A stretch of DNA of 64,000 nucleotides, from contig NZ_CP049272.1 in the NCBI RefSeq assembly GCF_003048775.2, positions 1,736,001 to 1,800,000 of the forward strand, written 5' to 3'. How positions within the stretch are numbered: position 1 is the first letter of the stretch; every line of letters starts with the position of its first letter. The DNA comes from Campylobacter concisus (lineage in GTDB: Bacteria > Campylobacterota > Campylobacteria > Campylobacterales > Campylobacteraceae). A model generated the notes under the pieces. The model had not been told where the DNA came from. It did no database searches and worked only from the letters and a program-made list of their open reading frames with translations. Position numbers and translations under genes: made by a program. Of the stretch, positions 4,126 to 51,511 are shown in pieces.

Positions 4126-4133
4126 GATTAATC

Positions 4134-4172
4134 ATCTAAGCATCAAATAGATGCTTAGATAATGCCTTTTTT
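4134..4172 (+). terminator. Terminator hairpin between rnhB and tpx
   Basis: A perfect 10-bp stem (4134-4143 with 4151-4160, arm ATCTAAGCAT) with a 7-nt loop. A short T run (4166-4172) follows on the plus strand. It separates the convergent genes rnhB and tpx. Confidence 0.55.
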
Positions 4173-4695
4173 AATGGCAGCCACAACCGCAACTACCGCT
4201 ACTTTTAATAGCATCAAATACAGCATCGTAGTTTGGCTCTTCTGTCACTTCAGGGACGATTTGTTTGTGAATGATTACGCCATCATTGATGACAAATACA
4301 GCTCTTGCGAGTAGTCCTTTTAGTGGGCCATCGCTCATTAAAATACCATAGTTTTTAGCAAATTCTCCGTATCTAAAGTCACTTCCTACACGTAAATTTT
4401 CTATGCCTTCAGTCGTGCAAAATCTCCCCATCGCAAATGGCAAATCATTTGAGATGATGCTAAGTTTTACACCATGTTTGCCAGCTACTTTTTCGTTAAA
4501 TTTACGAGCCTCTGCTGCGCAAACGCCAGTATCAAGTGATGGCAAGCAAACAAGTACTTCTACGCCATTATTTCCGCCTACGCTAAACTCGCTAAGATCT
4601 TGCGCTACGACTTTTGCTTCAGGAGCATAAGAGCCTACGAAGACCTCATTTCCACTTAAATTTACCTCACTACCTTTAAATTTTGTAGTTGCCAT
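4171..4695 (-). CDS. tpx: Thiol peroxidase (Tpx, atypical 2-Cys peroxiredoxin)
   Basis: 174 residues. It reduces hydrogen and alkyl peroxides using thioredoxin. The peroxidatic Cys is in L-D-T-G-V-C-A-A-E and the resolving Cys in G-R-F-C-T-T-E-G, the pair typical of Tpx. An unusual Cys-rich tail (C-G-C-G-C-H) ends the protein and might bind metal. A clear AAGGAG site precedes the ATG. It lies 14 bp downstream of the transsulfuration gene on the same strand, pairing sulfur metabolism with peroxide defence. Confidence 0.95.
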   Translation of the reverse strand: MATTKFKGSEVNLSGNEVFVGSYAPEAKVVAQDLSEFSVGGNNGVEVLVCLPSLDTGVCAAEARKFNEKVAGKHGVKLSIISNDLPFAMGRFCTTEGIENLRVGSDFRYGEFAKNYGILMSDGPLKGLLARAVFVINDGVIIHKQIVPEVTEEPNYDAVFDAIKSSGSCGCGCH

Positions 4696-4709
4696 ATCTA
4701 TCTCCTTTA

Positions 4710-5852: not shown

Positions 5853-6069
5853 AAATTTCCTTTTAAAAATTTGTGAAATCTTACATAATAAAGATTAATC
5901 TTCCCCAAACCCACCCAAAACGTAGCTAAATCAGTAAGTGGTAGTAACATTTATTTTTAAGAATGCATTTTTTAAATTGCTGGGATAAATTTAAGCTTTT
6001 GCTCTCTCCCCGCAAGCCTAATAAATTTTTCTTTTTTACTCGCCTTTAGCTACATTTTCACCATAAATT

Positions 6070-6528
6070 TTACTCTACAAGATCAACTTGCCAGTTTGCC
6101 TCTTGTAGCTTCATATCTAGCTCTCTGATCTCTTTGGATAGCTCGTCTATTTGCTTTTGGAGCGTGGCCACATCAACACTACTTAAAATTTTTATCTCGC
6201 TATTTGAGTAAAGATCGACCTTTTGGCTTGCGCTTTTGGCAAAATCCCTAAGCACGCTTGCTTTTTGGCTTAGCGTATCTTTTTTAGCGATCATTTCAGT
6301 TAGACTCGCGCCTTCAAATTTTGCACTTGAGTTTGTTAAATTTATAGTCAAGATCAGTCTAAATAGCTCATCGCTTAGCCTATCAAGCTCTTTTAAAAGA
6401 AGTTTTGGATCTTCACTAGGTCTTTCATTTTCTTGCATTTTTGCATTATCGAGTAACCTACCTTTTAGCTGCTCTAAACGTTTTTGTGTATCGGCTCTTA
6501 AAATGAGAGCCTGAGCTAATTTCATCAT
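6070..6528 (-). CDS. DIP1984-like family protein (septicolysin-related, DUF6847-type)
   Basis: 152 residues, almost entirely helical. The N-terminus (M-K-L-A-Q-A-L-I-L-R-A-D) and the following Q-L-K-G-R-L-L-D-N-A-K match the conserved start of the DIP1984 family, small cytoplasmic coiled-coil proteins found across bacteria. Function is not established; some entries carry the name septicolysin. It is preceded by AAGGAAA and probably starts at the second of two Met codons (6525) or at 6528. It stands alone between divergently and co-oriented metabolic genes. Confidence 0.8.
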   Translation of the reverse strand: MMKLAQALILRADTQKRLEQLKGRLLDNAKMQENERPSEDPKLLLKELDRLSDELFRLILTINLTNSSAKFEGASLTEMIAKKDTLSQKASVLRDFAKSASQKVDLYSNSEIKILSSVDVATLQKQIDELSKEIRELDMKLQEANWQVDLVE

Positions 6529-6588
6529 TTTTTCCTTTTGAAATATAAATTGAGAGAAAATTTCAAATTATATTAGTATCTTTTGGGT

Positions 6589-6594
6589 TATAAT
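6589..6594 (+). promoter_or_regulatory. -10 box TATAAT upstream of patB-like gene
   Basis: TATAAT sits 31 bp before the ATG at 6625, and an AAGGA ribosome site follows (6615-6619). T-rich DNA precedes it. Confidence 0.55.
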
Positions 6595-6624
6595 TGATTT
6601 AAAATTTTATTTTAAGGAAAAGCT

Positions 6625-7791
6625 ATGAAGTACGATTTTGATACGCTTATTAGCAGAGATGGCACTAACTCATCAAAATGGCGAATGAAAAATGATGTTT
6701 TGCCAATGTGGGTTGCTGATATGGATTTTAAGGCTGCACCTGAAATTTTAAATGCCCTACAAAAGCGTCTTGATAATGGCGTCTTTGGCTACTCATTTAT
6801 CCCAAAAGAGTGGAACGAAGCGATTAAAGGCTGGTGGAAGAGGCGTCATAATGTTAGCTTTGAAAACGATTGGATGTGCTTTTGCACTGGTGTTATACCA
6901 GCGATTTCTACTGCGATTAGAAGATTTAGCAATCCAGGAGATCAAATTTTAGTTCAAGCTCCCGTCTATCATGTATTTTTTAACTGCATAAAAAACAACG
7001 GCCGTGAAATTTTATCAAACGACCTTGTCTATAAAGATGGCTCTTATGAGATCGATTTTGAAGACCTTGAAGCAAAGCTAGCTCAACCACTAACAACTAT
7101 GATGCTTCTTTGTAATCCTCACAATCCAATAGGAAAAATTTGGGACAAAGAGACGCTTAAAAAAATAGGTGAGCTTTGCTATAAGCATGATGTTTTGGTT
7201 ATCAGCGATGAGATCCACTGCGACATAACAGATCCTGGTCTAAGTTACGTGCCATTTATTAGCGTTAGCAAAGAGTGTAAAAATAACTCAATCACATGCA
7301 TCTCACCAACAAAAGCCTTTAATATAGCAGGACTTCAAAGCTCAGCTATCATCACACCTAATGAGCAGATACGCGCCAGAATAAATGCGGCTGTAAATTA
7401 TGATGAGATAGGTGAAGCAAACGCATTTGCGATAACTGCGACAATAGCGGCATTTAACGATAGTCAAACATGGCTTGATGAGCTTAGGGAGTATCTTTTT
7501 GAAAACAAAAAGGTCGTTATAAATTTCATAAAAGAGCAAAATTTGCCAGTAAAGCTTCTGCCTTCAAATGCGACTTATCTTTTATGGCTTGATTGCAGCG
7601 CGTTTTGCGAGGATTCGAGCGACTTTATGAATTTCTTGCGTGACAAAGCTGGACTTTGGCTAAATGACGGCAATGCTTACAGGGGAGATAGATTTTTCCT
7701 CCGTATGAATATCGCAACCCAAAGAGCCAGAGTGCTTGAGGGGCTAAAACGCTTACAAAATGGTATAAATTTATACACTTCAAAAAGATAA
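6625..7791 (+). CDS. patB: MalY/PatB-type aminotransferase-fold C-S lyase (putative cystathionine beta-lyase)
   Basis: 388 residues, class I/II aminotransferase fold. The N-terminal segment L-P-M-W-V-A-D-M-D-F is diagnostic of the MalY/PatB branch. The PLP Lys lies in S-P-T-K-A-F-N-I-A-G-L and the cofactor-ring contacts in C-N-P-H-N-P-I-G and I-S-D-E-I-H-C-D. Known members cleave cystathionine or cysteine to give homocysteine or sulfide, pyruvate and ammonia. With the nearby trans-sulfuration enzyme it suggests a methionine/cysteine role. The start has a good AAGGAAAAG site. Confidence 0.88.
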   Translation: MKYDFDTLISRDGTNSSKWRMKNDVLPMWVADMDFKAAPEILNALQKRLDNGVFGYSFIPKEWNEAIKGWWKRRHNVSFENDWMCFCTGVIPAISTAIRRFSNPGDQILVQAPVYHVFFNCIKNNGREILSNDLVYKDGSYEIDFEDLEAKLAQPLTTMMLLCNPHNPIGKIWDKETLKKIGELCYKHDVLVISDEIHCDITDPGLSYVPFISVSKECKNNSITCISPTKAFNIAGLQSSAIITPNEQIRARINAAVNYDEIGEANAFAITATIAAFNDSQTWLDELREYLFENKKVVINFIKEQNLPVKLLPSNATYLLWLDCSAFCEDSSDFMNFLRDKAGLWLNDGNAYRGDRFFLRMNIATQRARVLEGLKRLQNGINLYTSKR

Positions 7792-8254
7792 ATTGAGTAA
7801 ATTTGGCTGAGTGGCTTTTGAATTTTAAGCTACTCCTGCCTAATATTGATACAGCTCGGGGCACTTTTGAAGCAGTGAACATTGCCCCCCCACCACCATT
7901 TTTTAACATCAAATCAAGTTTTGCTAATAAATTTAAAGATAAGATGGCCTACACTAGTTTTTATTTGGTTGCTTTAAATTTAAGTATATGACCGCTCTCA
8001 ATTACGATATAGTAGATTGATAAAGCAAACATTTTATGCCTTTTTGAAGTGGTAAATTCTATGCCCATAGCTTGTAAATTTAGCAGTATGTTTAAAACCA
8101 AAATTTTAAAGATGAGCTATCTCGTATTGTTTTTAAATTTAAGAAAAATTGTTTGCTAAAATAAAATTTTGAGCTATTTTTGAAGTTGCACTTTCTTTTA
8201 AAACAAGATAGTTTTTGCTGATAAATTTGATGATTTTAAAAATTTAGATAAAAG
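7792..8254. other. Intergenic region without a supported gene
   Basis: About 460 bp of AT-rich DNA between convergent patB and sodB. Short open frames exist on both strands, but they lack ribosome sites and read as low-complexity translations. A C7 run (7884-7890) followed by CCACCACC is the only notable feature and is too short to call a contingency repeat. No RNA gene was recognised. Confidence 0.6.
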
Positions 8255-8283
8255 TAGAAATTTAAAGGCGGGAAAGCCCCGCC
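8255..8283 (-). terminator. Rho-independent terminator of sodB
   Basis: A GC-rich 6-bp stem (GGCGGG 8267-8272 with CCCGCC 8278-8283) with a 5-nt loop lies 5 bp past the sodB stop. On the minus strand it is followed by a T/A-rich run (TTTAAATTT). Confidence 0.65.
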
Positions 8284-8288
8284 AGATA

Positions 8289-8906
8289 CTATTTATGTAG
8301 TTCTTTTGTGTAAAACTCAACTGAGCCAAGGCCCTCTTTTAGCGCCCACTCATAAGCTTTGCTCACAAATTCCCAGTTTATGTTCTCATAAAATGTCTCT
8401 AGGTATTTTGGACGAGCGTTGAAGTTGTCGATGTAGTAAGCGTGCTCCCACACATCAACTACTAGAAGTGGCACTTTGCCATCGCTTACTGGAGTTTTTG
8501 CGTTGCTAGTTTGCACGATCTCTAGCTTTTTGCTGCTTGGGTCAAAGACAAGCCATGCCCAGCCTGAGCCAAAAAGCGTTGTAGCTGCCTTTAAAAACTC
8601 CTCTTTGAAGTTCGCGAAATTTGCTTCGATCGCAGCTTTTAGCTCGCTTGGCATCTCGCTTTTTTTAGCGATGCAGTCCCAGTAAAAGTCGTGGTTGTAA
8701 ACTTGAGCAACGTTGTTATAAAGCCCACCTTCGCTATTTGTTAGAATTTCATAAAAAGATGCGTTAGCAAATTTTGTATCTTTTATAAGATTGTTTAAAT
8801 TTGCTACGTAAGTTGCATGATGCTTGCCGTAGTGGTATTCACAGGTTTTTGCGCTAACTACTGCATTGCTATTTGCATCAAATGGAAGTTTTCTAAGTTC
8901 AAACAT
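8289..8906 (-). CDS. sodB: Superoxide dismutase (Fe type)
   Basis: 205 residues. It converts superoxide to oxygen and peroxide in the cytoplasm. Metal ligands can be seen: an N-terminal His in K-T-C-E-Y-H-Y-G-K-H-H, a second His in N-H-D-F-Y-W, and Asp and His in V-D-V-W-E-H-A-Y-Y. The Gly-Ser-Gly-Trp-Ala-Trp stretch is typical. The N-terminal M-F-E-L-R-K-L-P-F matches Campylobacter SodB by recollection. The Fe versus Mn assignment is inferred from the genus. Confidence 0.96.
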   Translation of the reverse strand: MFELRKLPFDANSNAVVSAKTCEYHYGKHHATYVANLNNLIKDTKFANASFYEILTNSEGGLYNNVAQVYNHDFYWDCIAKKSEMPSELKAAIEANFANFKEEFLKAATTLFGSGWAWLVFDPSSKKLEIVQTSNAKTPVSDGKVPLLVVDVWEHAYYIDNFNARPKYLETFYENINWEFVSKAYEWALKEGLGSVEFYTKELHK

Positions 8907-9150
8907 AATAATTCCTTAATAATAAAATTTGTTGTTTTGTATTATAGCCATAAAAAATTAATAAATAAAAATCTTTTAAATTTAGCCGCAAAATATAGGC
9001 TAAATTTAAGCAAACCTAAACTTACATTTTTTTTGGCGGGCTTTTTAAACTTATAGAAAAGAAAAAAATTTGGAGCAAAAATATCCCATACATTTGGTTA
9101 AATGGATTCAAAAAAATTTATTAAATGTAAAAAAATAAAAATAAATTTTA

Positions 9151-9270
9151 TGTGTAAAAAGTAACAAATATAATTTAAAAGTTTAGTTATTGAAAAAAAT
9201 TATAAAAAAATTTTTTTTGAAAAATATAAATTAGCTTTTTAAAAAGCACATTTGTTACTAAAAATACACA
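9151..9270. repeat. Spaced inverted repeat upstream of dctP
   Basis: The left arm at 9151-9169 (TGTGTAAAAAGTAACAAAT) mirrors the right arm at 9250-9270. The innermost 10 bp (AGTAACAAAT/ATTTGTTACT) and outermost 6 bp (TGTGTA/TACACA) pair exactly, and the spacer between arms is 80 bp. A pair of operator sites for a looping or dimeric regulator is a plausible reading; no regulator gene is adjacent. Confidence 0.5.
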
Positions 9271-9338
9271 TATAAAAAAATAAATAGCTGTGAATTTACG
9301 AAACAAAAATTTCTAAATTTTTTTATTTTTTTGAAATT

Positions 9339-9344
9339 TATAAT
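9339..9344 (+). promoter_or_regulatory. -10 box TATAAT of the dctPQM operon
   Basis: TATAAT sits 33 bp before the dctP ATG, downstream of T-rich DNA, with an AAAGGA ribosome site at 9365-9370. Confidence 0.6.
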
Positions 9345-9376
9345 GCGTTTAACAAAACCATTACAAAGGATAAAAG

Positions 9377-10369
9377 ATGAAATTCTTACAAGCTTTACTT
9401 TTCACTTGTGCCATCAGTGGCTTAGCATTTGGTGCAGACAAGGTCTATACGATCAAATTTGCTCACGTTGTCGCAGCTTCTACACCAAAAGGCAAAGCGG
9501 CTGACTTTTTTGCTAAACGTGCTGAGGAGCTAAGTGGCGGTAAACTAAAAGTTCAAGTCTTCCCATCAGCTCAGCTACTTGATGATGATAGAGTTTTTGG
9601 TGCGTTAAAGCTTGGCAATGTTCAAATGGCAGCTCCAAGTTTTTCAAAATTTACGCCTATTGTGCCGCAGTTTCAGCTATTTGACCTGCCTTTCATCTTT
9701 AAAGATGCAGAGCACCTTCATAAGGTCCAAGACGGCGAGGTCGGCGAGGAGCTAAAAGCCCTTGTTACAAAAAAGGGCTTTGTGGCGCTTGATTATTGGG
9801 ATGCTGGATTTAAGCATTTTAGCTCAAGCAAAAAGCCAGTTCTTGTGCCAGAAGATGCAAAAGGACAAAAATTTAGAATCCAAAGCTCAAAGGTACTTGA
9901 AGAACAAATTAAAGTAGTTGGTGGCAACCCGCAAGTACTTCCATTTTCAGAAGTTTACTCTGCACTTCAACAAGGCGTAGTTGATGCGACAGAAAACCCA
10001 CTTTCAAATTTCTATAACTCAAAATTTCACGAAGTTCAAAGCTCGCTCACACTTTCAAGTCACGGATATTTGGGCTATTTAGTCGTTATGAGCGATAAAT
10101 TTTGGAGCAAGCTACCAGATGATCTAAAAGCAAATGTAAAACAAGCTCTAAGCGAAGCAACAGCTTTTGAGAGAGAAGAGACAGCAAAAGAGGACGCTCA
10201 CGTCATAGCTGAGCTTGAAAAATATATAGCAGACACCAAAAAGCTAGAAATTTTCAAGATCGATGATGCACAAAAGGCTGAGTGGCAAAAGGTTATGCAA
10301 TCAATCTATCCTAAATTTTATGATGTTATCGGTAAAGACCTCATAGAAAAGACTCTTGGAACAAAATAA
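9377..10369 (+). CDS. dctP: TRAP transporter solute-binding protein, DctP family
   Basis: 330 residues with a Sec signal peptide (about 1-19, cleavage after A-F-G-A). This is the periplasmic substrate receptor of a tripartite ATP-independent transporter. The DctP-fold signatures are G-K-L-K-V-Q-V-F-P-S-A-Q-L and V-F-G-A-L-K-L-G-N-V-Q-M. The carboxylate-binding Arg is in K-F-R-I-Q-S-S and the N-P-L-S-N stretch is also present. Such systems bring in C4-dicarboxylates, but substrate cannot be fixed from sequence. The stop overlaps the dctQ start by one base. Confidence 0.95.
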   Translation: MKFLQALLFTCAISGLAFGADKVYTIKFAHVVAASTPKGKAADFFAKRAEELSGGKLKVQVFPSAQLLDDDRVFGALKLGNVQMAAPSFSKFTPIVPQFQLFDLPFIFKDAEHLHKVQDGEVGEELKALVTKKGFVALDYWDAGFKHFSSSKKPVLVPEDAKGQKFRIQSSKVLEEQIKVVGGNPQVLPFSEVYSALQQGVVDATENPLSNFYNSKFHEVQSSLTLSSHGYLGYLVVMSDKFWSKLPDDLKANVKQALSEATAFEREETAKEDAHVIAELEKYIADTKKLEIFKIDDAQKAEWQKVMQSIYPKFYDVIGKDLIEKTLGTK

Positions 10370-10911
10370 TGAAGAGCTTTTTTAATGTCCTTGATATAGC
10401 GATAGCCTCACTAAATAAAACTATCGCAGTAGTTGGGCTCGCAAGTGGAACATTGCTAGCCTTTGCAAATGTTATGGCTAGATATTTTTTCGATAAAAGC
10501 TGGTCTTGGGCGAGCGAGCTATCAAACTATCTTTTTATCTGGTCGGCGTTTTTTGCCGCGGCATACGGCTTTAATAAGGGCATTCACGTCAGTGTAACTA
10601 TTTTGGTGGAAAAATTTCCACCAGCCCTTGCAAAAGCGTGTTTAATCTTCTCTCATGTACTAACTACTGTGTTTTTGTTATTTATCGCTGTTTATTCGAT
10701 TGATTATCTACAAATTCTTCACGAGATCGAGCAGATGATAATAGACCTTGGCATACCACAATGGGTACCTATGCTAGTGCTTCCTATAGCCTTTGTCACA
10801 GCTAGTTACCGCTCGACTGAAAAAGCCATAAAAGTAGCTCTAACGCCTGCTGAAAACGTTGTGAGTAACGAGGCACATGAGCTAGCTCATGGTAGCGTAG
10901 TCAAAGATTAA
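10369..10911 (+). CDS. dctQ: TRAP transporter small permease, DctQ family
   Basis: 180 residues with four predicted membrane helices (about 15-40, 50-72, 90-112, 130-150). The conserved W-S-W-A-S-E-L-S-N-Y-L-F-I-W motif of the small TRAP subunit is present. It forms the membrane complex with DctM. Translation is coupled to dctP through a TAATG overlap, and dctM follows after 11 bp. Confidence 0.93.
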   Translation: MKSFFNVLDIAIASLNKTIAVVGLASGTLLAFANVMARYFFDKSWSWASELSNYLFIWSAFFAAAYGFNKGIHVSVTILVEKFPPALAKACLIFSHVLTTVFLLFIAVYSIDYLQILHEIEQMIIDLGIPQWVPMLVLPIAFVTASYRSTEKAIKVALTPAENVVSNEAHELAHGSVVKD

Positions 10912-10922
10912 GGAGAAAAAAG

Positions 10923-12206
10923 ATGACAATAGCATTTTTATTTATCCTACTTTTTGCGCTAATGCTAATAGGTGTGCCAGTTGCGGTTTCACTGGGAACT
11001 AGCACCGTTTTAACAATGATATTTTTTACAGATATAGACATCGCTACGATCCCACAGCTTATATTTGATGGTATCAATAAATTTTCGCTAATGGCGATAC
11101 CGATGTTTATCTTGGCTGGAAATTTACTAAGTAAAGGCGGCTCAGCAAGACGTATCATCGACTTTGCAAAGTCTATGGTCGGACACTTGCCAGGTGGCTT
11201 GCCTATGAGTGCGATATTTGCCTGCATCATCTTTGCAGCAGTATCTGGAAGCTCACCTGCGACGGTTGTAGCTATTGGCTCGATTATGTTTGCAGCGATA
11301 AAAGAGGCTGGCTATCCAAAAGAGTACGCAGTGGGCGGCATAACAACGGCTGGCTCACTTGGAATTTTGATCCCACCTTCAGTTGTCATGATAGTTTATG
11401 GAGTAACTGCTGAGGTAAGTATTGGTAAGCTTTTTATGGCAGGCGTTGTGCCTGGTCTTATGCTTGGAGCTTTTATGCTCGTTCAAACCTATGTTGGCGC
11501 AAAAAAACTTGGATTTAAAGCGACCAAGGCTGAGCCATTTAAAGTAAGAGTACAGAAATTTGCCAAAGCATTTTGGGCGCTTTTAATCGTTGTCGTGGTC
11601 ATCGGCGGAATTTATGGAGGAATTTTTACTCCAACTGAAGCTGCTGCGGCAAGTGCGGTCTATGCACTCTTTATCTCACTTTTTATCTACAGAGATATAA
11701 AGATAAAAGATCTTTGGGATATCTGCCTAGACTCAGCTCTTACAACAGCTATGATATTTTTCATCATCGCAAATGCCGTTGTTTTTGCATATTTGCTAAC
11801 TAGCGAGCAGATCCCTCAAGCTATCGCTTCGATGATACTTGACGCAAATATTGGTATGATAGGATTTTTGATATTTGTAAATATCCTGCTCTTTATCATG
11901 GGTCAGTTCATGGAGCCTTCAAGCGTCATCATGATCATGGTGCCACTATTGCTTCCGATTTCAACGCAACTTGGCATAGATCCGATACATTTTGGCATTA
12001 TCTTAGTTGTAAATATGGAGATAGGTATGGTGACTCCGCCTGTTGGACTAAATTTATTTGTCGCAAGCGGTCTTACAAATATGAACTTAAAAGAGGTCAT
12101 CATGGCATGCTTGCCGTGGACACTTACTTTATTCTTTGGCCTTATCTTGGTTACTTATATACCACAAATTTCTCTTTGGTTGCCAAACATAATGTATGGA
12201 CATTAA
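10923..12206 (+). CDS. dctM: TRAP transporter large permease, DctM family
   Basis: 427 residues with about 12 membrane segments. This is the ion-coupled transport channel of the TRAP system. Family motifs include A-I-P-M-F-I-L-A-G-N-L, S-G-S-S-P-A-T-V-V-A-I-G-S, I-P-P-S-V-V-M-I-V-Y-G and T-P-P-V-G-L-N-L-F. It is the last gene of dctPQM; a strong hairpin follows directly. Confidence 0.95.
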   Translation: MTIAFLFILLFALMLIGVPVAVSLGTSTVLTMIFFTDIDIATIPQLIFDGINKFSLMAIPMFILAGNLLSKGGSARRIIDFAKSMVGHLPGGLPMSAIFACIIFAAVSGSSPATVVAIGSIMFAAIKEAGYPKEYAVGGITTAGSLGILIPPSVVMIVYGVTAEVSIGKLFMAGVVPGLMLGAFMLVQTYVGAKKLGFKATKAEPFKVRVQKFAKAFWALLIVVVVIGGIYGGIFTPTEAAAASAVYALFISLFIYRDIKIKDLWDICLDSALTTAMIFFIIANAVVFAYLLTSEQIPQAIASMILDANIGMIGFLIFVNILLFIMGQFMEPSSVIMIMVPLLLPISTQLGIDPIHFGIILVVNMEIGMVTPPVGLNLFVASGLTNMNLKEVIMACLPWTLTLFFGLILVTYIPQISLWLPNIMYGH

Positions 12207-43117: not shown

Positions 43118-43151
43118 TATGGCTAGAAAAACTAGCCATAAAATTTATTTT
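43118..43151 (+). terminator. Hairpin between rmuC and the DUF5339 gene
   Basis: A 9-bp perfect stem (TATGGCTAG 43118-43126; CTAGCCATA 43132-43140) with loop AAAAA, lying between the convergent genes; AAATTTATTTT follows. Confidence 0.6.
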
Positions 43152-43435
43152 AAAAGACCTTGTTTTTTCATTTGTTCCATTACTTGAGCAAACATCTCTT
43201 TAGCTTGTTTGCAAGTAGCGTCTTGTTGCTCTTTTGGAAGTGCAGCAAGTTGGTCCATTGATTGCTTCTTTTGATCTTCATAAATTTTTACTTGTTGCTC
43301 TTGACCAGCTTTTTTGTAAGCTTCGACCATTTTGTCGATGTCTGAGAAGTATGATTTGCAAGTATCTGTAAGATCTGCAGCGTTTAGGCTTAGTGCAAAG
43401 CCAAGAGTAGCTAAAACTAAAAGTGATTTTTTCAT
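43145..43435 (-). CDS. Small periplasmic protein, DUF5339-like
   Basis: 96 residues. The signal peptide (1-19) ends L-N-A-A-D. The mature part is helical and Gln/Lys-rich, with two Cys (D-T-C-K-S-Y and D-A-T-C-K-Q) placed to pair across a helical hairpin. The arrangement agrees with the DUF5339 family. The strong AAGGAGAAAG ribosome site suggests abundant expression. Function unknown. Confidence 0.75.
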   Translation of the reverse strand: MKKSLLVLATLGFALSLNAADLTDTCKSYFSDIDKMVEAYKKAGQEQQVKIYEDQKKQSMDQLAALPKEQQDATCKQAKEMFAQVMEQMKKQGLLK

Positions 43436-43502
43436 CTCTTTCTCCTTATAAAAATTTAAAATAATTATAGTACTTTTTGCTTATAAGAGAGTAAATTTGA
43501 AA

Positions 43503-43540
43503 TAAAAAATTCATAGCCAAAGCTCTAAGCGCCTTGGCTA
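43503..43540 (-). terminator. Terminator of the desulforubrerythrin gene
   Basis: A 10-bp stem with one G-U pair (43514-43523 with 43531-43540) and a 7-nt loop, followed on the minus strand by TGAATTTTTTATTT. Confidence 0.7.
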
Positions 43541-43550
43541 TTTTGGCTTT

Positions 43551-44195
43551 TTAGCCTAGGAATTCGCGCTTAAAATACTCTTTTGGAGCTTTGCAAAGCG
43601 GGCAAGCACCTGGAGCTTTTTTGCCTCTGTGAACGTGTCCGCAGACCTCACAAACCCAGATATCTTCTTCATCACTCTCAAAAAAGCCCTCTTCATCAAG
43701 CATCTTTTTAAGCTCTAGATACTCCCTCTCATGCTCAACCTCAACCTTGCCGATCGCGTTAAATAGCCTCTCAACATCTCTTAGCTCTTCTTCTTTTGCG
43801 ATCTTTGCAAAGTCTGGATACATTGTCGTATGCTCGTAGTTTTCGCCAGCTGCTGCATCAAGTAAATTTTTATCCATCTTATCGATCGGATCGTTCATTA
43901 GCTCGTGATATTTTTTAAACTCCGCTCTTGCGTGCCATTTCTCATTTTCAGCTGCCTCGTAAAAGTGCCTAGCAATAGCATGATAGCCTGCTTCTTTGGC
44001 TAGATCACCGTAAAGCTCATACTTGTTTCTAGCTTGTGATTCGCCAGCAAATGCCTTCATCAAATTTACCGCTGTTAAATTTTCAGTGATGCACTTCATC
44101 TCTTCGCCGCAACAGGTTAGTGTACCGCCGCCAACCTTTTGCACCTCGATCTCGTTGCCGCATTTTTCGCATTTGTATGTTTCGTACTGTCTCAT
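43551..44195 (-). CDS. Desulforubrerythrin
   Basis: 214 residues from the ATG at 44195 (M-R-Q-Y-E-T-Y-K-C). It has three metal modules. An N-terminal desulforedoxin-like iron site carries C-E-K-C and T-C-C-G. A four-helix diiron domain has E-S-Q-A-R, E-K-W-H-A-R, E-N-Y-E-H and E-V-E-H-E. A C-terminal rubredoxin site has C-E-V-C and C-P-L-C. It reduces hydrogen peroxide; C. jejuni has the same architecture and nearly the same length. It adds to Tpx and SodB in this window's oxidative defence. Confidence 0.95.
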   Translation of the reverse strand: MRQYETYKCEKCGNEIEVQKVGGGTLTCCGEEMKCITENLTAVNLMKAFAGESQARNKYELYGDLAKEAGYHAIARHFYEAAENEKWHARAEFKKYHELMNDPIDKMDKNLLDAAAGENYEHTTMYPDFAKIAKEEELRDVERLFNAIGKVEVEHEREYLELKKMLDEEGFFESDEEDIWVCEVCGHVHRGKKAPGACPLCKAPKEYFKREFLG

Positions 44196-44288
44196 TTTGA
44201 CTCCTATTTTGATAAATTTTGAGTGGATTATAACCAAATAATTAAAATAAGTAAATAATAATTTTTATTGATAACGTATATTATTATT

Positions 44289-44513
44289 TTATTTTTTACA
44301 CAAAATTTGTGTGAGTTTTGTTACAAATGGAGAGACTAGCAAAAGCACAGGATACGCCACTATAAAGGCTTTTACATAAGCAATTAGCCAAATTTTTACA
44401 AAGCCATCAATAAAACCAAGGTTTAGATATGTCAGCACAAATGACATGAAAAAAGCCATAAATGCTGACATTATAAACGCAAAAACATATTTATAAAATT
44501 TTGCTGGTATCAT
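44289..44513 (-). CDS. DUF2798 small membrane protein
   Basis: 74 residues with two membrane helices (about 8-30 and 42-64). The pattern F-I-M-S-A-F-M-A-F-F-M-S-F followed by W-L-I-A-Y-V-K-A-F and Y-P-V is that of DUF2798. Its start overlaps the end of the flavoprotein gene by 4 bp (ATGA type), so it belongs to that operon. Role unknown. Confidence 0.82.
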   Translation of the reverse strand: MIPAKFYKYVFAFIMSAFMAFFMSFVLTYLNLGFIDGFVKIWLIAYVKAFIVAYPVLLLVSPFVTKLTQILCKK

Positions 44514-45070
44514 GAAATTTTGCCTATCAGCTCCTCTAGCCTCTTTGCATGATCAAGCGCCTTTTGCCTCATCAAAGCAAGCTTTGCCTCATCGTGCCTG
44601 CTCTGATATGATAACCCTCCGCTATAAACATAGCCTGCAAACTCCATACCACACATATTTGCTAACGCCTTAAGTGACGGCAAAAATTCCTCTATCTCAT
44701 AGCGCTGAAGCGCCTCTTTTTTATAAAGCTCCTCAGGCGAGCCAGAAGTAAATGAAAGCACCAGCTTTTTGCCACGTAGCTTATCTCCCTTGCTGCCATG
44801 AGAGAAGCCATGAACTAGCACATCCTCAAACCACTTTTGCAAAAGTGACGGCACGCCGTACCAGAAAAATGGATAAACAAGCACGATTACATCAGCTTTT
44901 ACTAGCTTTTCTTGCTCGGCTTTTACATCGATAGCATAGTTTTTATAAAGCTCGCTTAGTATGTCAAATTTAGCCTCTGGCAGGTGCTTTTTTAGCTCGC
45001 CCAAGATGATCTTATTCGCAAAAGAATTTTCAAGGTCGGTGTGACCTGATACGACTAAAATTTCACTCAT
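44510..45070 (-). CDS. NAD(P)H quinone-reductase-like flavoprotein (flavodoxin fold)
   Basis: 186 residues. I-L-V-V-S-G-H-T-D at the N-terminus, V-L-V-Y-P-F-F-W-Y-G-V-P-S-L-L-Q-K-W-F-E-D-V-L and H-G-F-S-H-G are the MdaB/KefF family landmarks. It probably reduces quinones or quinone-like phenolics with NAD(P)H. It is placed directly after the tannase gene (29-bp gap), at the end of the aromatic-ester cluster, with AGGGGC as ribosome site. A distant relative lies at 31563-32114. Confidence 0.87.
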   Translation of the reverse strand: MSEILVVSGHTDLENSFANKIILGELKKHLPEAKFDILSELYKNYAIDVKAEQEKLVKADVIVLVYPFFWYGVPSLLQKWFEDVLVHGFSHGSKGDKLRGKKLVLSFTSGSPEELYKKEALQRYEIEEFLPSLKALANMCGMEFAGYVYSGGLSYQSRHDEAKLALMRQKALDHAKRLEELIGKIS

Positions 45071-45099
45071 TTTTGCCCCTTAAATTTACTTTCTTAAAT

Positions 45100-46672
45100 T
45101 TACTTACAAACAAAGCTACTTGCCTTGCTAGCATCTCCGCCCACGTATGTAGCCACCTTTGGATAGGCACATACTAAAAATTCCTTGCCAGCGTAGGTCC
45201 TACTTTTTGCTAGCATTCTCTTTGGCGCTTCACCCTTTTCATGCCACGCTTCAAGCGCACCAAGCGGATCGACGTCATCTATGCCGTTGCCGCCACCGCA
45301 GTGGTTCATCCCAGGTAGCGCAAAAAAATGCCGCGAAATTTTGGCTATTTTCATTATCAGCCTCTAGCTTTTTAAACCAATCCCTTTGATCTTTTGCCGA
45401 GAAAACTGGGTCTGAAACGCCAGTTACGATGATTATCTTGCCGCCATTTGCGCTAAATGTGCTAAGGCTTGTTGAGATGGCGTCATTTATCGCTGCGGTC
45501 TCGAAAGTCTTTGGCGTGTCTTTGTCAAAGTCAAAATTTATCGTGTCAAAATTTGGCTGTGCTGGCGTTAGAAAATAATAATTCACCGAGCCGCTTGAAA
45601 GCGTGATATTTCTAGCGTTTGGCTTGGTGCTTTGTGAGTCGCCCAGCTTCCACTGCCTCCAGCCCTCAGCGCTCACGCCTGAGTCGTAAAACCAGCCGCT
45701 ATAAATTTGCTCGCCCTTGCTGTTTTTGGCTCCGTTAAAGATTTTCTCTATCGCCTCTATCTTTTGCTTCTCTAAATTTAGACTTTTTGGATCAAATTTG
45801 CACGCCTCCCAAGCATTGATGATCCCATCTTTTAGTCCGTCTAAGCCGTCACATTTTTCTAGCACGGCGTGGCTTAGCTTGTCAAGGTCGTCCTTAGTTA
45901 GGGCATTTGCAAAAATTTTCTCGCCTTTTTCATTTTTCGGAGCTATCTTCATAAGGGCTTGGTTGTCCCACTGCTGAGCGATCGCCGCGCGAGATAGCCT
46001 AAAGCCAGGGTTTGCAGCGATGACGCCATCAAATTCAAGTGGATAGCGCTGGACTGCGATTAGTGCTGCCCTACCGCCATTTGAGCAGCCCATGAAGTAG
46101 CTATGTTTTGGCTTTTTGGCGTATGCGGTGGCTAAAATTTGCTTAGATGCGTCCGTTACCTTGCCGATCGCCTGATAGGCGTAGTCTAGCCTTGCTTGCT
46201 GATCTAGCCCAAACTCTGCCGTTGGCTCTGGGTGTCCTGAGTTTGTTGTAACTACCGCGTAGCCTCTAAGAAGCGCTGGCGTGGCTGTGCTTGTTCGTAT
46301 CGGCACTGCGCCAAGAGCAGGTGCTACAAAGCCGTCCATACCGCCCCCACCTTGAAATAAAAATTTCTCATTCCACTGCTCTGGCAGCCTTAGCTCATAG
46401 TCTATCGCATACTCTTTGCCATCTGAGCCGGTGCGCTTATATAGTTTGCCATGCACCACGCAGTGAGGCTTTGCTTTGATAGTGTTTTTACTGCCACCAG
46501 TTAGCGCAGACATCTTATCGGCTGATACTTCGCCACTCTCATTCCACACCGCGTCTATCATCTCGTTGTTTAAAATTTTCACATCTTTTAAACTCTCACA
46601 TCCAGCCCTATCAAGGGCAAAAGCTGTGCTACTAACAAGTGCTAGTGCGCAAAAAAGTGAAATTTTCTTCAT
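45100..46672 (-). pseudogene. Tannase/feruloyl esterase family protein, frameshifted in an A7 tract
   Basis: The signal peptide (1-19) is followed by an alpha/beta-hydrolase of the tannase family. The nucleophile is in M-G-C-S-N-G-G-R with the family's Cys before Ser; a candidate acid lies in V-T-G-V-S-D-P. The first frame ends at 45275. The missing tail is in another frame (F-F-A-L-P-G-M-N-H-C-G-G-G to the stop at 45100). Dropping one base from the seven A at 45322-45328 joins them exactly and restores the His-Cys of the CS-D-HC motif. As read, the product lacks its catalytic His. It may be switched off reversibly rather than dead. Confidence 0.85.
45322..45328 (-). repeat. A7/T7 tract at the tannase frameshift
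   Basis: Seven A on the plus strand (T on the coding strand). Six would restore the full tannase reading frame. Short for a switch, but it lies exactly at the break. Confidence 0.6.
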
Positions 46673-46680
46673 AACATCTC

Positions 46681-47364
46681 CTAAAATTTTACCTTGCTAA
46701 ATGAGATCTCGTTCTTAAGACCAAAGCCGTCAAATTCATCTATTAGCCCCGCTCGCTCTTTGGCGTAAGCCTTGTAGTTTTCGCTGTGGCGGTAGCTCTC
46801 AAAGCTAGCTTCGTCTTTGTAAATTTCAACCAGCACCCACTTGTTTGGCGCGTCCTTTTGACTAAAGGCAAACTGTGCAAATGCAGCGTCATCTACGCTT
46901 TTTTGCATATATTTTTTGATGATCTTTTCAAATTTCGTATCGCTTTTTGCTAAGAGGCTTAAATTTGTGATGTGAAAGTAGGCATCTTTTAGGCGCTCTG
47001 ACGTTAAATTTTTAGAAAACGCAGCCCTCTTTTTCACGCTTGTAGCCTTTTTGCTAGCCAAAATTTCAGCGCTTGCGCTTGCAAATTTCTTAAAATGCGC
47101 CGAGCTTAGATGCTTTTTATAAGCCGCCTCATCCTCATAAAACTCAAGCACGTAAAATAGCTCTGGCTTACTCTTTGCACTCGCAAAAAAGATCGCCTGC
47201 GTGCCTGGCTCACTCTTTGAGCTAAGGATATTTTCCCTGCCAAGCTGCTTTAGCAAGCTCTTGTTATTTGGCGTTGAAAGCAGCTCGTATAAGCTCACTT
47301 TCGCCTCCGCCCCAAAGGCAAAAGCTGCCGAAAATACTAATAAAAATAGCTTTTTAATCATCAA
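46681..47364 (-). CDS. Exported protein with two ABM (antibiotic biosynthesis monooxygenase-like) domains
   Basis: 227 residues. The signal peptide ends near F-G-A-E. Two ferredoxin-like repeats follow. The first has E-L-F-Y-V-L-E-F-Y-E-D-E-A-A-Y-K-K-H and the second K-W-V-L-V-E-I-Y-K-D-E-A-S-F-E-S-Y, each followed by the H/N-x-K segment typical of ABM dimers. ABM proteins act as cofactor-free monooxygenases or heme degraders. The exported location and duplication are unusual. It lies between the two tannases with gaps of 8 and 12 bp. Confidence 0.8.
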   Translation of the reverse strand: MMIKKLFLLVFSAAFAFGAEAKVSLYELLSTPNNKSLLKQLGRENILSSKSEPGTQAIFFASAKSKPELFYVLEFYEDEAAYKKHLSSAHFKKFASASAEILASKKATSVKKRAAFSKNLTSERLKDAYFHITNLSLLAKSDTKFEKIIKKYMQKSVDDAAFAQFAFSQKDAPNKWVLVEIYKDEASFESYRHSENYKAYAKERAGLIDEFDGFGLKNEISFSKVKF

Positions 47365-47376
47365 ATTTCCTTAAAT

Positions 47377-48813
47377 TTATTTCTCAACCACTCTTTTAAT
47401 CCAAGCAAAAAGCTCGTCTAAATCGTAGTCGCCGCCATGTCCTTGTCCCCAGACCGCTTCAAAATCAACCTCTTTGCCAGCATTTTTAAGCGAAAGCGCG
47501 AGCATAGCAGGTACGGCAAGGGCTAAGTCGGTGTCGTTTGTGCCCTGTCTTATGCGGTAAAATTTCGCCGCTTCATTATTTTTAGCGTAGTTCATCGCAT
47601 TCATCATCTTTATGACGCTAGCGTCTGCCATCTCGCCGCCGCTTCGCTCTTTTGCAAATTTAGTAAAGTGCTTTGCAGGCGTTTTGCTATCGCCAAAGAG
47701 GTCGTTTTCAGGATTTTCTAGCCCAAATCCGTCAAAGGCAACCACCGCTTTAGCGCGTTTTAGCGAAGCGATGAAGTCTTCTAGCTTAAATGTATATCCA
47801 AGCGAGCAGCCCTGCGTGTCAAGAGTTATAAATTTAGGTGTGAGCGTGTTTTTGTCGCTGCTTTTTGTAGCGGTAAATGCCTTTGAGATGAGGGCGCTTA
47901 TATACTCTTTGAAGCTGCCCTCGCCGTTTTCATCAAGGCTTAGCGCGTGGCCTTTGGCGTCTTTTAAATTTAGCGAGTTTAGATAGGCTGGGAATTTGCT
48001 CTTTAGCTCGCGCGAGAGCTCTTGTTGTGTGGCGTTTAGCTCGCCCGTGATAGTCTTTGGCTTTTTGATCCTGTCGTTAAAAGTGTTCGCGTTAAGACTT
48101 GAAAGATCAAGCCTTTCAAATTTATCCAAATCCCCAAACATCCACTCATACGCCTCGTCCTCATGCTCTAAATTTATCACAGGGCAGTAGGCTGAAGCGG
48201 CATAAATTTGATCGTCTGCCTTTGTAGCGCCTAGCTCTTTAAGATATGGCTCATACTCTTTTGCCCCTGCGCTTGTGCCAAGAAGTGCCGACATCGCGCC
48301 GCCTGCGCTCGTGCCGTTTGAGATTATTTTATTTGCGTCGCCTGGCATAAATTTGTCGTTAAATTTAAGATATCTAACAGCCGCTTTTAGATCGACTATC
48401 GCAGCTGGGGCTTTGCCGATAAATTTCTCGCCATCTTTTAGCGTCCTGCCCCTAGCGCCAACGCTTGCCACGACGTAGCCTCTAAGAAGCGCTTCAAGGG
48501 TGGCATTTGGCTTTTCGTTTTGGATTTCTGGCTTTTGTGGCATTGCGCTCATGTAGCCACCGATAGCATTTGGCATAAAAATGGCCGTCTTTTGGTCGCC
48601 AAATTTATCCTCTGGCACGTAGAAATTTAAAATCTCATAGTCGCTAACTGGCTTTGATACATAGACTATGCCCTCATAAGCTCTAAATTTAAGCGTCCTC
48701 TCGCCAACTTGTACGCTTTTTAGCTCAAATTTCTTTTCATTAAATTTAAGCTCGCCACCAAAGCAAGCGCCTACTAAACAAACCCCTAAAATAGCAACTC
48801 TAACGCCTTTCAT
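47377..48813 (-). CDS. Exported tannase-like esterase (subtype B-like alpha/beta hydrolase)
   Basis: 478 residues with a signal peptide ending G-A-C-F-G-G; the Cys could make it a lipoprotein. The nucleophile motif is N-G-T-S-A-G-G-A-M-S-A-L-L-G, very like bacterial subtype-B tannases. A C-terminal G-Q-G-H-G-G-D-Y-D offers the catalytic His, and R-Q-G-T-N-D-T-D an Asp. Such enzymes cleave galloyl and protocatechuoyl esters. Intact, unlike its distant cousin downstream. Starts 70 bp after the SDR gene. Confidence 0.82.
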   Translation of the reverse strand: MKGVRVAILGVCLVGACFGGELKFNEKKFELKSVQVGERTLKFRAYEGIVYVSKPVSDYEILNFYVPEDKFGDQKTAIFMPNAIGGYMSAMPQKPEIQNEKPNATLEALLRGYVVASVGARGRTLKDGEKFIGKAPAAIVDLKAAVRYLKFNDKFMPGDANKIISNGTSAGGAMSALLGTSAGAKEYEPYLKELGATKADDQIYAASAYCPVINLEHEDEAYEWMFGDLDKFERLDLSSLNANTFNDRIKKPKTITGELNATQQELSRELKSKFPAYLNSLNLKDAKGHALSLDENGEGSFKEYISALISKAFTATKSSDKNTLTPKFITLDTQGCSLGYTFKLEDFIASLKRAKAVVAFDGFGLENPENDLFGDSKTPAKHFTKFAKERSGGEMADASVIKMMNAMNYAKNNEAAKFYRIRQGTNDTDLALAVPAMLALSLKNAGKEVDFEAVWGQGHGGDYDLDELFAWIKRVVEK

Positions 48814-48883
48814 GATCTGCCTTTTTATTTTGTCCTACTTTTTGCTTTACTAGCCTTGGCGTAGGCTACCAGGGCTTTAGCGC

Positions 48884-49624
48884 CTAGTTATCTTTTGGCT
48901 CGTATTTGATCGCGTAGTCAAATTTTGGCTTGCTTAAACTAAACTCAAAGCTATCTCTATCGACCGAGCCAACGCAGTAATGGCTATCATAAAGGCGAAG
49001 CAAAAACTCCGCCATCTGCTCGCTCGTGTGGTACTTTTTAAACGCCTTGTCGTAATCGTAGCTCTCTTTGCTAGTTGCCACCATGCCAAATTCTGTCTTT
49101 GTGGCAGCTGGAGCTAGGACTTTTGCCTGCATTTTTGCCTGCTTGTCCTGTGCTAGCTCGTGGTAAAGTCCCTCGCTAAAGGCACTTACGAAAAATTTGC
49201 TAGCGCAGTATGTGACGGCATTTGGCACGATCTTGTAGCCACCTATCGAAGAGATGTTTATAAGCTGCGTATCTTTGTCTTTGTATTTTTTAGTAAAGAG
49301 CGTTGAGAGCGTGACAAGCGAGATGATGTTTAAATTTATCATCTGCGTGATTTTTTCTAAATTTTGCTCGCCGACCTTGTTGTAGTCGCCAAAGCCAGCG
49401 TTATTTATAAGCGCTTTTAACTCAAATTTTTCTAAATTACGCCAAAGAGCTAGGGTATTTTCTTGATTTGAAAGGTCGCAAAGCTCTATCACCACATCGA
49501 CATTTGCAAATTTGGCTATCTCGCTTTTTAGCTCTTCTAAAAGCTCGCCACGCCTTGCAAATGCCTTTACCGCGGCCGCTCCTATGCCTGAGCTTGCTCC
49601 AGTGATGGCGATGTATCTTTTCAC
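48884..49624 (-). CDS. Short-chain dehydrogenase/reductase with a shortened Rossmann start
   Basis: 246 residues. It has the SDR cofactor motif T-G-A-S-S-G-I-G, N-N-A-G, a catalytic Ser in I-S-S-I-G-G-Y and Y-C-A-S-K. Between A-F-A-R-R-G and E-L-L-E-E-L the segment that normally forms beta strand 2 and its cofactor-specifying Arg/Asp (about 10 residues) is absent. This suggests an in-frame deletion between short Ala-Arg-Arg repeats. Activity may be impaired. It overlaps the upstream oxidoreductase gene by 4 bp. Confidence 0.85.
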   Translation of the reverse strand: MKRYIAITGASSGIGAAAVKAFARRGELLEELKSEIAKFANVDVVIELCDLSNQENTLALWRNLEKFELKALINNAGFGDYNKVGEQNLEKITQMINLNIISLVTLSTLFTKKYKDKDTQLINISSIGGYKIVPNAVTYCASKFFVSAFSEGLYHELAQDKQAKMQAKVLAPAATKTEFGMVATSKESYDYDKAFKKYHTSEQMAEFLLRLYDSHYCVGSVDRDSFEFSLSKPKFDYAIKYEPKDN

Positions 49625-50262
49625 TTCGCGTACTCCATCGGGCTATAAATTTTGACACCCTCGCTGTGGTCATCTTGCGCTACTTGCACGATCACCTTAG
49701 CGATGTCAGACGCTCTCATCGGACGATACTCGTCAAAAAAGCCTTTTGGGATAAATTTAAACGCCTTTATCGCTAGATACTCGCCAAGTCTAAATTCCTT
49801 TCTCTCAGCCTCGATAAGTGGCAGCCTAACGACATGAAACGAGCTATATCCAAGCTCTTTTATCTTTGCTTCTGCCTGACCTTTTGCCTTTAGGTAAAAC
49901 GAGCCTGACTTTCTGTTTGCCCCTGCGGCTGAGAGTAAAACAAAGCGTTTTGCGCCGCACTCTAAGCCAAATTTAGCGAAATTTATCGGATAGGTCACAT
50001 CGACTTTGTAAAACTGCTCTTTGTGCTTTGCCACTTTCATCGTCGTGCCAAGCGCGCAAAATACATCATCAGCGATAAATGGCACCTCATCTTTAAAATC
50101 ATCAAAATTTACTATCTTTACTTCAAGCTTTTCATGAGTAAAATTTAGTTCGTGCCTAGCAAGGGCGATAACCTTACTGTAATGCTCGCTCTGGCATAAA
50201 TTTTTTAAAATCTCACTTCCCAAAGCGCCACTGGCTCCAGCTATAAGGGCGATCTTTTTCAT
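49621..50262 (-). CDS. NAD(P)-binding Rossmann-fold oxidoreductase (atypical SDR, YwnB/HTATIP2-like)
   Basis: 213 residues. The N-terminal cofactor loop is I-A-G-A-S-G-A-L-G-S-E. F-C-A-L-G-T-T and F-V-L-L-S-A-A-G-A mark the NmrA/HTATIP2-type branch of atypical SDRs, many of which lack a proven substrate. The ribosome site is AAAGGAAAG. It is translated ahead of the SDR with a 4-bp overlap and follows the alcohol dehydrogenase by 29 bp, within the tannase cluster. Confidence 0.85.
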   Translation of the reverse strand: MKKIALIAGASGALGSEILKNLCQSEHYSKVIALARHELNFTHEKLEVKIVNFDDFKDEVPFIADDVFCALGTTMKVAKHKEQFYKVDVTYPINFAKFGLECGAKRFVLLSAAGANRKSGSFYLKAKGQAEAKIKELGYSSFHVVRLPLIEAERKEFRLGEYLAIKAFKFIPKGFFDEYRPMRASDIAKVIVQVAQDDHSEGVKIYSPMEYAK

Positions 50263-50291
50263 ATCTTTCCTTTGTAAAATTTAGATAAATT

Positions 50292-51437
50292 CTATCTCGC
50301 TAAGGCAAAAATTTCACTTATTGCCTCTTTTGTATAAATTTGCTCCAAGCCCCTACCCTTGGTATAGTCATAAACTAAAGCCATTATCTCGTCTAAATTT
50401 GTCTCATCAACGCCGATTTCAATGAGGCTTGTTGGCGTGCCGATCTTGCTAAACCACTCTTTTAGCCTCTCTATGCCTGCGTCTGCGTCATCCACGCTAA
50501 AAATTTCTTTGCCAAAGCGCTTAAATGCCTTTAAATTTCTACTCTTATACCACTTCATCCAAGCTGGCATAACGACACTTAGCCCAGCCCCATGCGCGCA
50601 ATCAACCACCGCACCTATGGCGTGCTCGATCATGTGATTTGGATATGAGTAGCCGGCTGTGCCAACGTAAGTTAAGCCATTTAGCGCCATCGTCGCAGCC
50701 CAAGCAAACTCGCATCTAGCGCCATAGTTTTCTGGCTCTTTTAGTAAAATTTCAGTCGTTTTCATGACCGTTTTGATGTTTGCTTCGATGTATAAATTTA
50801 TGATCTCAGGCTGAATGCTTGCCGTAAAATAGCCCTCGATGCTGTGAGCGATGATGTCTGAGGCTGAATAGACCAAGTACTCCTTGCTAACGCTTGCTTG
50901 AAGCAGCGGGTTTACCACTGAAACTTTTGGGTAAAGACAAGCGCCGTGCATGGCAAATTTCTCTTTTGTGGCTTCGTTTGTGACGACTGAGCCGCCGTTC
51001 ATCTCTGAGCCAGTTGCTGCAAGCGTTATGATGTCAAAGATCATAAGTGCTTCGCTTGGGTCTTTGCCTGTAAAAAAGTCCCAAACATCGCCATTATATT
51101 TAGCTCCAGCGGCCACAGCCTTTGCCGTGTCAAGCACTGAGCCACCACCTATGGCTAGCACGCTATCGACACCTTGCTTTTTAGCTAAATTTATAGCCTC
51201 GTTCACCTTGCTTAGCACTGGATTTGATTTCACGCCACCTATCTTGCAAAACTCGATGCCATTTGCACTTAGGCTCTTTGCTGCGATATCAAAAAGGCCA
51301 TTTTTTATGATCCTATCGCTACCATAGATGATAAGCGTCTTTTTAACGCCAAATTCTTTCATATATCTGCCGATATTTTGCTCTTTATCTTTGCCAAATT
51401 CTATTTTTGTAGGGTTTAAAAAGCTAAAATTTTGCAT
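50292..51437 (-). CDS. Iron-containing alcohol dehydrogenase (YqhD/butanol dehydrogenase type)
   Basis: 381 residues. NADPH-binding G-G-G-S-V-L-D-T-A-K, followed by metal-site residues: Asp in S-A-S-D-I-I-A-H-S with its His, H-M-I-E-H-A, and H-G-A-G-L. The family reduces aldehydes to alcohols. First gene of the minus-strand run that includes the two tannases, so it sets the start of that putative operon. AAGGAGA precedes the ATG. Confidence 0.93.
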   Translation of the reverse strand: MQNFSFLNPTKIEFGKDKEQNIGRYMKEFGVKKTLIIYGSDRIIKNGLFDIAAKSLSANGIEFCKIGGVKSNPVLSKVNEAINLAKKQGVDSVLAIGGGSVLDTAKAVAAGAKYNGDVWDFFTGKDPSEALMIFDIITLAATGSEMNGGSVVTNEATKEKFAMHGACLYPKVSVVNPLLQASVSKEYLVYSASDIIAHSIEGYFTASIQPEIINLYIEANIKTVMKTTEILLKEPENYGARCEFAWAATMALNGLTYVGTAGYSYPNHMIEHAIGAVVDCAHGAGLSVVMPAWMKWYKSRNLKAFKRFGKEIFSVDDADAGIERLKEWFSKIGTPTSLIEIGVDETNLDEIMALVYDYTKGRGLEQIYTKEAISEIFALAR

Positions 51438-51511
51438 AGTTTCTCCTTATTAGTTTTAATGATTATAGTTTTGCAAAGCAAAAATTTTTGTTAAAAATAA
51501 TGAGTAGAAAT

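What the first reader, a model, noticed from the sequence alone, without database searches (positions are those of the whole stretch)
44289..51437. A tannase-centred operon in a Campylobacter
Eight consecutive minus-strand genes with gaps or overlaps of at most about 70 bp encode an alcohol dehydrogenase, two Rossmann oxidoreductases, a subtype-B-like tannase, an exported two-domain ABM protein, a tannase/feruloyl esterase, a quinone-reductase-like flavoprotein and a DUF2798 protein. Three carry signal peptides. Together they could cleave phenolic esters outside the cytoplasm and handle the resulting quinones or aldehydes. Such a pathway is not a standard Campylobacter trait.
Basis: partly seen in the sequence, partly recalled or inferred. 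Interest (0 to 1): 0.72.

Follow-up and report, generated by a model that had tools for sequence, protein, structure and literature searches.

The report
Tannase joined to Campylobacter reductase operon

Summary
The eight-gene block exists as described, with one error. The gene called 'a tannase/feruloyl esterase' (PF07519) is split here by a frameshift in a T-run just before its catalytic His motif. Across 27 genomes of the C. concisus complex it is fully intact in 5, lacks its signal peptide in 4, is split in 5 and is reduced to a scar in 13. The SDR gene also lacks ten codons here. The other esterase, TanB, is a convincing subtype B tannase: 574 bits against a cut-off of 300, all catalytic and galloyl-binding residues present, intact in 26 of 27 genomes. 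The block is standard in C. concisus; other Campylobacterales sampled lack TanB, apart from sister Campylobacter. Two facts change the picture. The reductase backbone (Fe-ADH, SDR, exported two-domain ABM protein, KefF-type flavoprotein, DUF2798) occurs without tannases in other Campylobacter. And in all six TanB-bearing non-concisus Campylobacter, TanB lies between FecB-type and FecCD/FecE transport genes; C. concisus keeps that transporter without TanB. Best reading: a carbonyl/quinone-reductase operon that captured TanB. The most novel open reading is that TanB frees metal from galloyl or catechoyl ester chelates.

The parts
50292..51437 (-). Iron-containing alcohol dehydrogenase (YqhD-like, not equivalog), first gene
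   Evidence: PF00465/PF25137; NF011717 205 bits, below its cut-off of 645; homologue in 46 of 48 genus genomes
51462..51467 (-). TATAAT, candidate -10 element 25 bp before the ADH start
   Evidence: sequence; identical in the larger sub-clade of relatives and absent from the second sub-clade; no good -35 match
49621..50262 (-). NAD(P)-binding Rossmann protein (PF13460)
48884..49624 (-). SDR with a ten-codon in-frame deletion after residue 22 (near 49558), removing the segment around beta-2
   Evidence: alignment of 27 genomes, only this genome deleted
47377..48813 (-). TanB, subtype B tannase with N-terminal leader; S169, D427, H459, K355, E369, D429, C210
   Evidence: NF041556 574 bits; 6YQ4, 7Q6Y, 4J0C; residues invariant in A1, roles from PMC8958541
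46681..47364 (-). Exported two-domain ABM protein
   Evidence: PF03992, two stretches; PDB relatives 3mcs, 3f44
45275..46672 (-). PF07519 esterase (MHETase/feruloyl esterase/tannase family), N-terminal frame with Ser and Asp of the triad
   Evidence: PF07519 278.6 bits, profile 1-412; best PDB match MHETase; His absent
45322..45328 (-). T-run where the reading frame breaks
   Evidence: relatives in frame at this point
45100..45354 (-). Out-of-frame C-terminal part of the PF07519 gene, with the catalytic-His motif
   Evidence: PF07519 66 bits, profile 410-490
46522..46549 (-). N-side copy of an imperfect repeat near which most deletions of the PF07519 gene in relatives begin
   Evidence: junction mapping; coordinates read
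45228..45249 (-). C-side copy of that imperfect repeat
   Evidence: coordinates read
44510..45070 (-). Flavodoxin_2 flavoprotein, KefF/quinone-reductase type
   Evidence: PF02525 128 bits; KefF NF002044 134 bits, below its cut-off of 210
44289..44513 (-). DUF2798 small membrane protein
   Evidence: PF11391

Best explanation
It is probably one transcription unit of C. concisus: a carbonyl/quinone-reductase stress operon, older than the species complex, that took in a periplasmic subtype B tannase (TanB) and a second aromatic esterase (PF07519) that is now being lost. Shown: gene content, order, near-universal presence in the complex, purifying selection on intact genes, catalytic and galloyl-binding residues of TanB, the break in PF07519, and tannase-free versions of the backbone elsewhere in the genus. 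Inferred: TanB cleaves galloyl (and protocatechuoyl) esters in the periplasm; the exported ABM protein acts on the freed catechols or pyrogallols or their oxidised forms; the cytoplasmic flavoprotein, SDR, NAD-binding protein and Fe-ADH reduce quinones and aldehydes that get in. The esters are detoxified, not eaten, because no dedicated gallate decarboxylase was found.
For: TanB passes the tannase_B cut-off almost twofold and has every triad and galloyl-binding residue of CbTan2/TanLp. The nearest solved relative, 6YQ4, is the oral Fusobacterium nucleatum tannase; TanBFnp of that species acts only on gallic and protocatechuic esters among 27 phenolic esters tested (PMC5828091). Block order is conserved in 26 relatives. 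dN/dS is 0.06-0.16 for the intact operon genes. Backbone without tannase: SDR-ABM2-KefF-YciI-AraC in G042 (L191), KefF-YciI-ABM2 near Fe-ADH and an AraC gene in G032 (L190), Fe-ADH, SDRs, AKR and DUF2798 in G031 (L192). One UbiD gene.
Against: No transcript, substrate or phenotype data. Inactivating lesions occur in ADH, SDR, ABM2, KefF and DUF2798 of some relatives, so the block is dispensable in places. Part of one sub-clade lacks KefF, and that sub-clade has a different leader region. TanB's other home in the genus is a transporter operon, which points to another role.
Confidence: 0.5

Rival explanations
1. TanB serves metal acquisition: it hydrolyses galloyl or catechoyl ester chelates of iron (dietary tannins or catecholate xenosiderophores) in the periplasm so that metal is released for a FecBCDE-type importer; in C. 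concisus the gene has been moved away from that importer.
For: In 6 of 6 TanB-bearing non-concisus Campylobacter, TanB is on the same strand between a FecB-type binding protein (PF01497) and FecCD (PF01032)/ATPase genes; G031 adds a TonB siderophore-type receptor (221.9 bits, cut-off 223.5). C. concisus keeps the orthologous FecB-FecCD-ATPase without TanB. Known TanB substrates are esters of vicinal-OH, metal-binding acids (PMC5828091).
Against: Five of the six genomes are one tight clade, so there are only two independent lineages. No convincing Fur box upstream of either locus. The binding protein has no close characterised relative and could carry heme, nickel or cobalamin. In C. concisus TanB is nowhere near the transporter.
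Confidence: 0.25
2. TanB and the reductases are only neighbours: a relocated esterase landed in an unrelated reductase cluster and shares only its promoter.
For: Each component occurs separately elsewhere in the genus; PF07519 comes and goes; extra unrelated genes are inserted next to TanB in one sub-clade.
Against: TanB and the exported ABM gene stay together in all 27 genomes of the complex, under purifying selection where intact; three exported products in a row are unlikely to be accidental.
Confidence: 0.2
3. The break in the window's PF07519 gene is a sequencing error or a phase-variable switch, and the strain has two working esterases.
For: The break lies in a T-run, and another relative (G011) has a length change in a different T-run of the same gene.
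Against: The gene is split or deleted in many relatives by clearly different lesions, including large deletions with several junctions; relatives show no out-of-frame variants at the window's T-run that would mark a switch; the tract is short.
Confidence: 0.1

Closest known systems
TanBFnp, subtype B tannase of Fusobacterium nucleatum subsp. polymorphum (nearest PDB chain 6YQ4)
   Same: Family, length class, signal peptide, oral habitat; best PDB match
   Different: Activity of the Campylobacter protein untested; genetic setting differs
CbTan2 (7Q6Y) and TanLp (4J0C group)
   Same: Ser-Asp-His triad, Lys-Glu-Asp galloyl site and nearby Cys all align
   Different: CbTan2 has no predicted signal peptide
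MHETase / PF07519 tannase-feruloyl esterase family
   Same: PF07519 fold with Ser and Asp motifs; best PDB match MHETase
   Different: The window copy lacks the catalytic His in frame; substrate unknown
E. coli yqhC-yqhD-dkgA aldehyde-stress locus (recalled from general knowledge)
   Same: Fe-ADH, an AKR closest to DkgA and AraC_N regulators occur in the backbone loci of sister Campylobacter
   Different: ADH is far below the YqhD equivalog cut-off; the window's genome has no AraC_N gene and no AKR in the block; tannase and exported ABM added
Periplasmic siderophore esterases (IroE, PfeE, C. jejuni Cee; recalled)
   Same: Esterase gene in or near an iron-siderophore-type importer
   Different: TanB is a tannase-family enzyme; no siderophore-esterase family matched

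Membership tests
Subtype B tannase | NF041556 curated cut-off (300 bits) | tested here: met
   574.4 bits
Subtype B tannase | Ser-Asp-His triad with GXSXG | tested here: met
   S169 in GTSAG, D427, H459, aligned to CbTan2 S175/D439/H471
Subtype B tannase | Galloyl-binding Lys, Glu, Asp | tested here: met
   K355, E369, D429 aligned to CbTan2 K365/E379/D441; invariant in six Campylobacter TanBs
Subtype B tannase | Hydrolysis of galloyl esters | not testable with these tools
   needs enzyme assay
PF07519 tannase/feruloyl esterase | Profile score over cut-off | tested here: met
   278.6 and 66 bits in two frames, cut-off 29.8
PF07519 tannase/feruloyl esterase | Complete catalytic triad in one open frame | tested here: not met
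   His motif is in another frame in the window; in one frame in relatives such as G009
Antibiotic biosynthesis monooxygenase (ABM) | PF03992 domains | tested here: met
   two stretches, 76 bits
Antibiotic biosynthesis monooxygenase (ABM) | Quinol oxidase/monooxygenase activity | not testable with these tools
   no substrate evidence; the two-domain PDB relatives are named only 'putative monooxygenase'
KefF quinone oxidoreductase | NF002044 equivalog cut-off (210 bits) | tested here: not met
   134 bits; Flavodoxin_2 family met
YqhD aldehyde reductase | NF011717 equivalog cut-off (645 bits) | tested here: not met
   205 bits; Fe-ADH family met
Single operon | One transcript across eight genes | tested here: inconclusive
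   gaps at most 70 bp and a TATAAT before the first gene; promoter-like counts no higher than in shuffles
FecBCDE-linked esterase (sister species) | Same-strand position inside the transporter genes | tested here: met
   6 of 6 non-concisus TanB genomes; not so in C. concisus

The most novel reading that the evidence does not exclude
In oral Campylobacter the tannase is a metal-acquisition enzyme: a periplasmic galloyl/catechoyl esterase working with a FecBCDE importer to strip iron (or another metal) from tannin-type chelates, later wired in C. concisus into a reductase operon that copes with the redox-active products.
Probability: 0.22. Interest if true: 0.7.

Novelty: new variant of a known kind. 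Interest (0 to 1): 0.42.

Why it matters
Tannases of oral bacteria are usually read as detoxifiers or sugar scavengers. A tannase built into a metal-chelate uptake operon would be a new physiological role and would tie diet polyphenols to iron supply in oral and gut Campylobacter. No paper on a Campylobacter tannase was found in the held library. The recurrent loss of the second esterase offers natural presence/absence strain pairs for tests.

Tried and rejected
Gallate catabolism: only one UbiD-family gene, in a 625-codon open frame that looks like the housekeeping enzyme by length. Fur control: best match 13/19 at the ADH leader, a score reached or exceeded at 28 places in the window and absent from the second sub-clade; upstream of the fec loci 10-12/19. 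Promoter and terminator scans no better than shuffles. TanB with ABM, PF07519 or KefF neighbours outside the C. concisus complex: none in the other fetched TanB loci; the one PF07519 hit is a G043 locus without TanB. Rfam: only tRNAs. PADLOC: the upstream radical-SAM gene scores weakly as viperin-like, judged a superfamily match. Phase variation of PF07519: not supported. Structure prediction was not used because sequence already fixed the families.

Full report
What is there. The window lies at G000:C1:1736001-1800000 of a 1.83 Mb Campylobacter genome; its TanB relatives include named C. concisus records. The block 44289-51437 on the minus strand is real: Fe-ADH, NAD(P)-binding protein, SDR, TanB, exported two-domain ABM protein, PF07519 esterase, Flavodoxin_2 flavoprotein, DUF2798. 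Gaps are 29, -4, 70, 12, 8, 29 and -4 bp. It is flanked by a radical-SAM gene upstream and rubrerythrin downstream.

ORF 45275-46672 carries profile positions 1-412 of PF07519 and ORF 45100-45354 positions 410-490 in another frame. The break is in a T-run directly before the His motif. Among 27 genomes of the C. concisus complex I count: full length with leader and Asp/His motifs in 5 (G006, G009, G012, G016, G028; G028 carries a GCSNSGR variant of the Ser motif); catalytic domain open but leader out of frame or lost in 4 (G011, G014, G026, G027); split or internally deleted in 5 (G000, G005, G015, G025, G030); only end fragments or nothing in 13. The fragments show about six different junctions, most at or near an imperfect repeat on either side of the catalytic domain. 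The gene is therefore being lost repeatedly, although copies whose N-terminal part is open still show purifying selection (dN/dS 0.094). The window's SDR also lacks ten codons that all other genomes have; whether it still folds is unknown.

TanB is the solid part. It scores 574 bits against NF041556 (cut-off 300). It aligns over its length to 6YQ4, 7Q6Y and the TanLp structures. S169, D427 and H459 match the triad, K355, E369 and D429 the galloyl site, and C210 the active-site Cys of CbTan2 (PMC8958541); all are invariant in six Campylobacter TanBs. It is open in 26 of 27 genomes of the complex. In a sample of 249 Campylobacterales genomes only members of the same genus group pass the cut-off.

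The backbone is older than the tannase link. Fe-ADH homologues occur in 46 of 48 genomes of the genus. G042 has SDR, exported ABM, KefF-type flavoprotein, YciI and an AraC_N regulator in a tight row; G032 has KefF-type flavoprotein, YciI and exported ABM with Fe-ADH and an AraC_N gene nearby; G031 has Fe-ADH, NAD-binding and SDR genes, an ABM remnant, a DkgA-like AKR and DUF2798. None of these loci carries TanB or PF07519. This resembles the aldehyde-stress locus yqhC-yqhD-dkgA (recalled) with quinone-handling genes added, though the equivalog cut-offs for YqhD and KefF are not met.

TanB has another home. In the six non-concisus genomes with a full TanB (G031, G034, G037-G040; G040 is C. showae CC57C by contig match) it lies on the same strand between a FecB-type binding protein and FecCD plus ATPase genes (in G040 the short contig ends inside FecCD), with a TonB siderophore-type receptor in G031. 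The window's genome and two other C. concisus genomes examined retain the orthologous FecB-FecCD-ATPase set with no TanB and only about 25 bp between FecB and FecCD; G004, G045 and G046 have the transporter and no TanB. Campylobacter TanBs form one clade (100/100), but the order of branching within it is weak (82/53), so 'ancestral in fec, moved in C. concisus' is the simplest reading, not a proof. The six genomes are two independent lineages at most.

Mechanism. Most likely (about 0.5) TanB hydrolyses galloyl esters outside the cytoplasm, and the ABM protein and cytoplasmic reductases handle catechol, quinone and aldehyde products, for detoxification. A dedicated gallate decarboxylase is not evident (one UbiD gene). 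The main rival (about 0.25) is metal acquisition: the known TanB substrates, gallic and protocatechuic esters (PMC5828091), are metal-binding groups, and the sister-species setting is a metal-chelate importer. No Fur box supports it and the importer's ligand is unknown.

Limits. Signal peptides were judged by eye. Operon status rests on spacing and a -10-like TATAAT that one sub-clade lacks. The genome set holds one genome per species-level cluster, so strain-level frequencies within a cluster are not known. I could not check reads for the frameshift. The dN/dS values are simple pairwise Nei-Gojobori means.

Noticed in passing
L076, L078, L080, L186, L187, upstream of the FecB-type genes: A palindrome AATAT-N11-ATATT (AATATGCATTTTTGTAATATT), in two copies in L076 and L080, precedes the FecB-type genes of several Campylobacter and may be an operator; the regulator is unknown.
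   Followed up: partly
L084:239-3263 (G043): A PF07519 esterase about 50-56% identical to the C. concisus gene lies directly behind an OprD-family porin gene in another Campylobacter genome.
   Followed up: partly
Between TanB and ABM2 in G008, G014, G016, G017, G019, G021: A sub-clade-specific gene for a 140-172 aa exported protein with no Pfam match (one member tested) is inserted between TanB and the ABM gene.
   Followed up: partly
Between SDR and TanB in G019 and G021; behind a truncated KefF in G027: A flavin-reductase-domain gene (G019, G021) and a YciI-like gene (G027) occur in the block, further redox cargo.
   Followed up: partly
43145-44237: Rubrerythrin and DUF5339 genes downstream lie in the opposite orientation and order in one sub-clade (G006, G008, G014, G017, G019, G021, G025, G027), a local inversion.
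   Followed up: no
L192 (G031), 2508-11828: The Fe-ADH/SDR/DUF2798 region of G031 holds a transposase-like gene, a cupin gene and fragments of the SDR and ABM genes, so that version of the block is decaying too.
   Followed up: no
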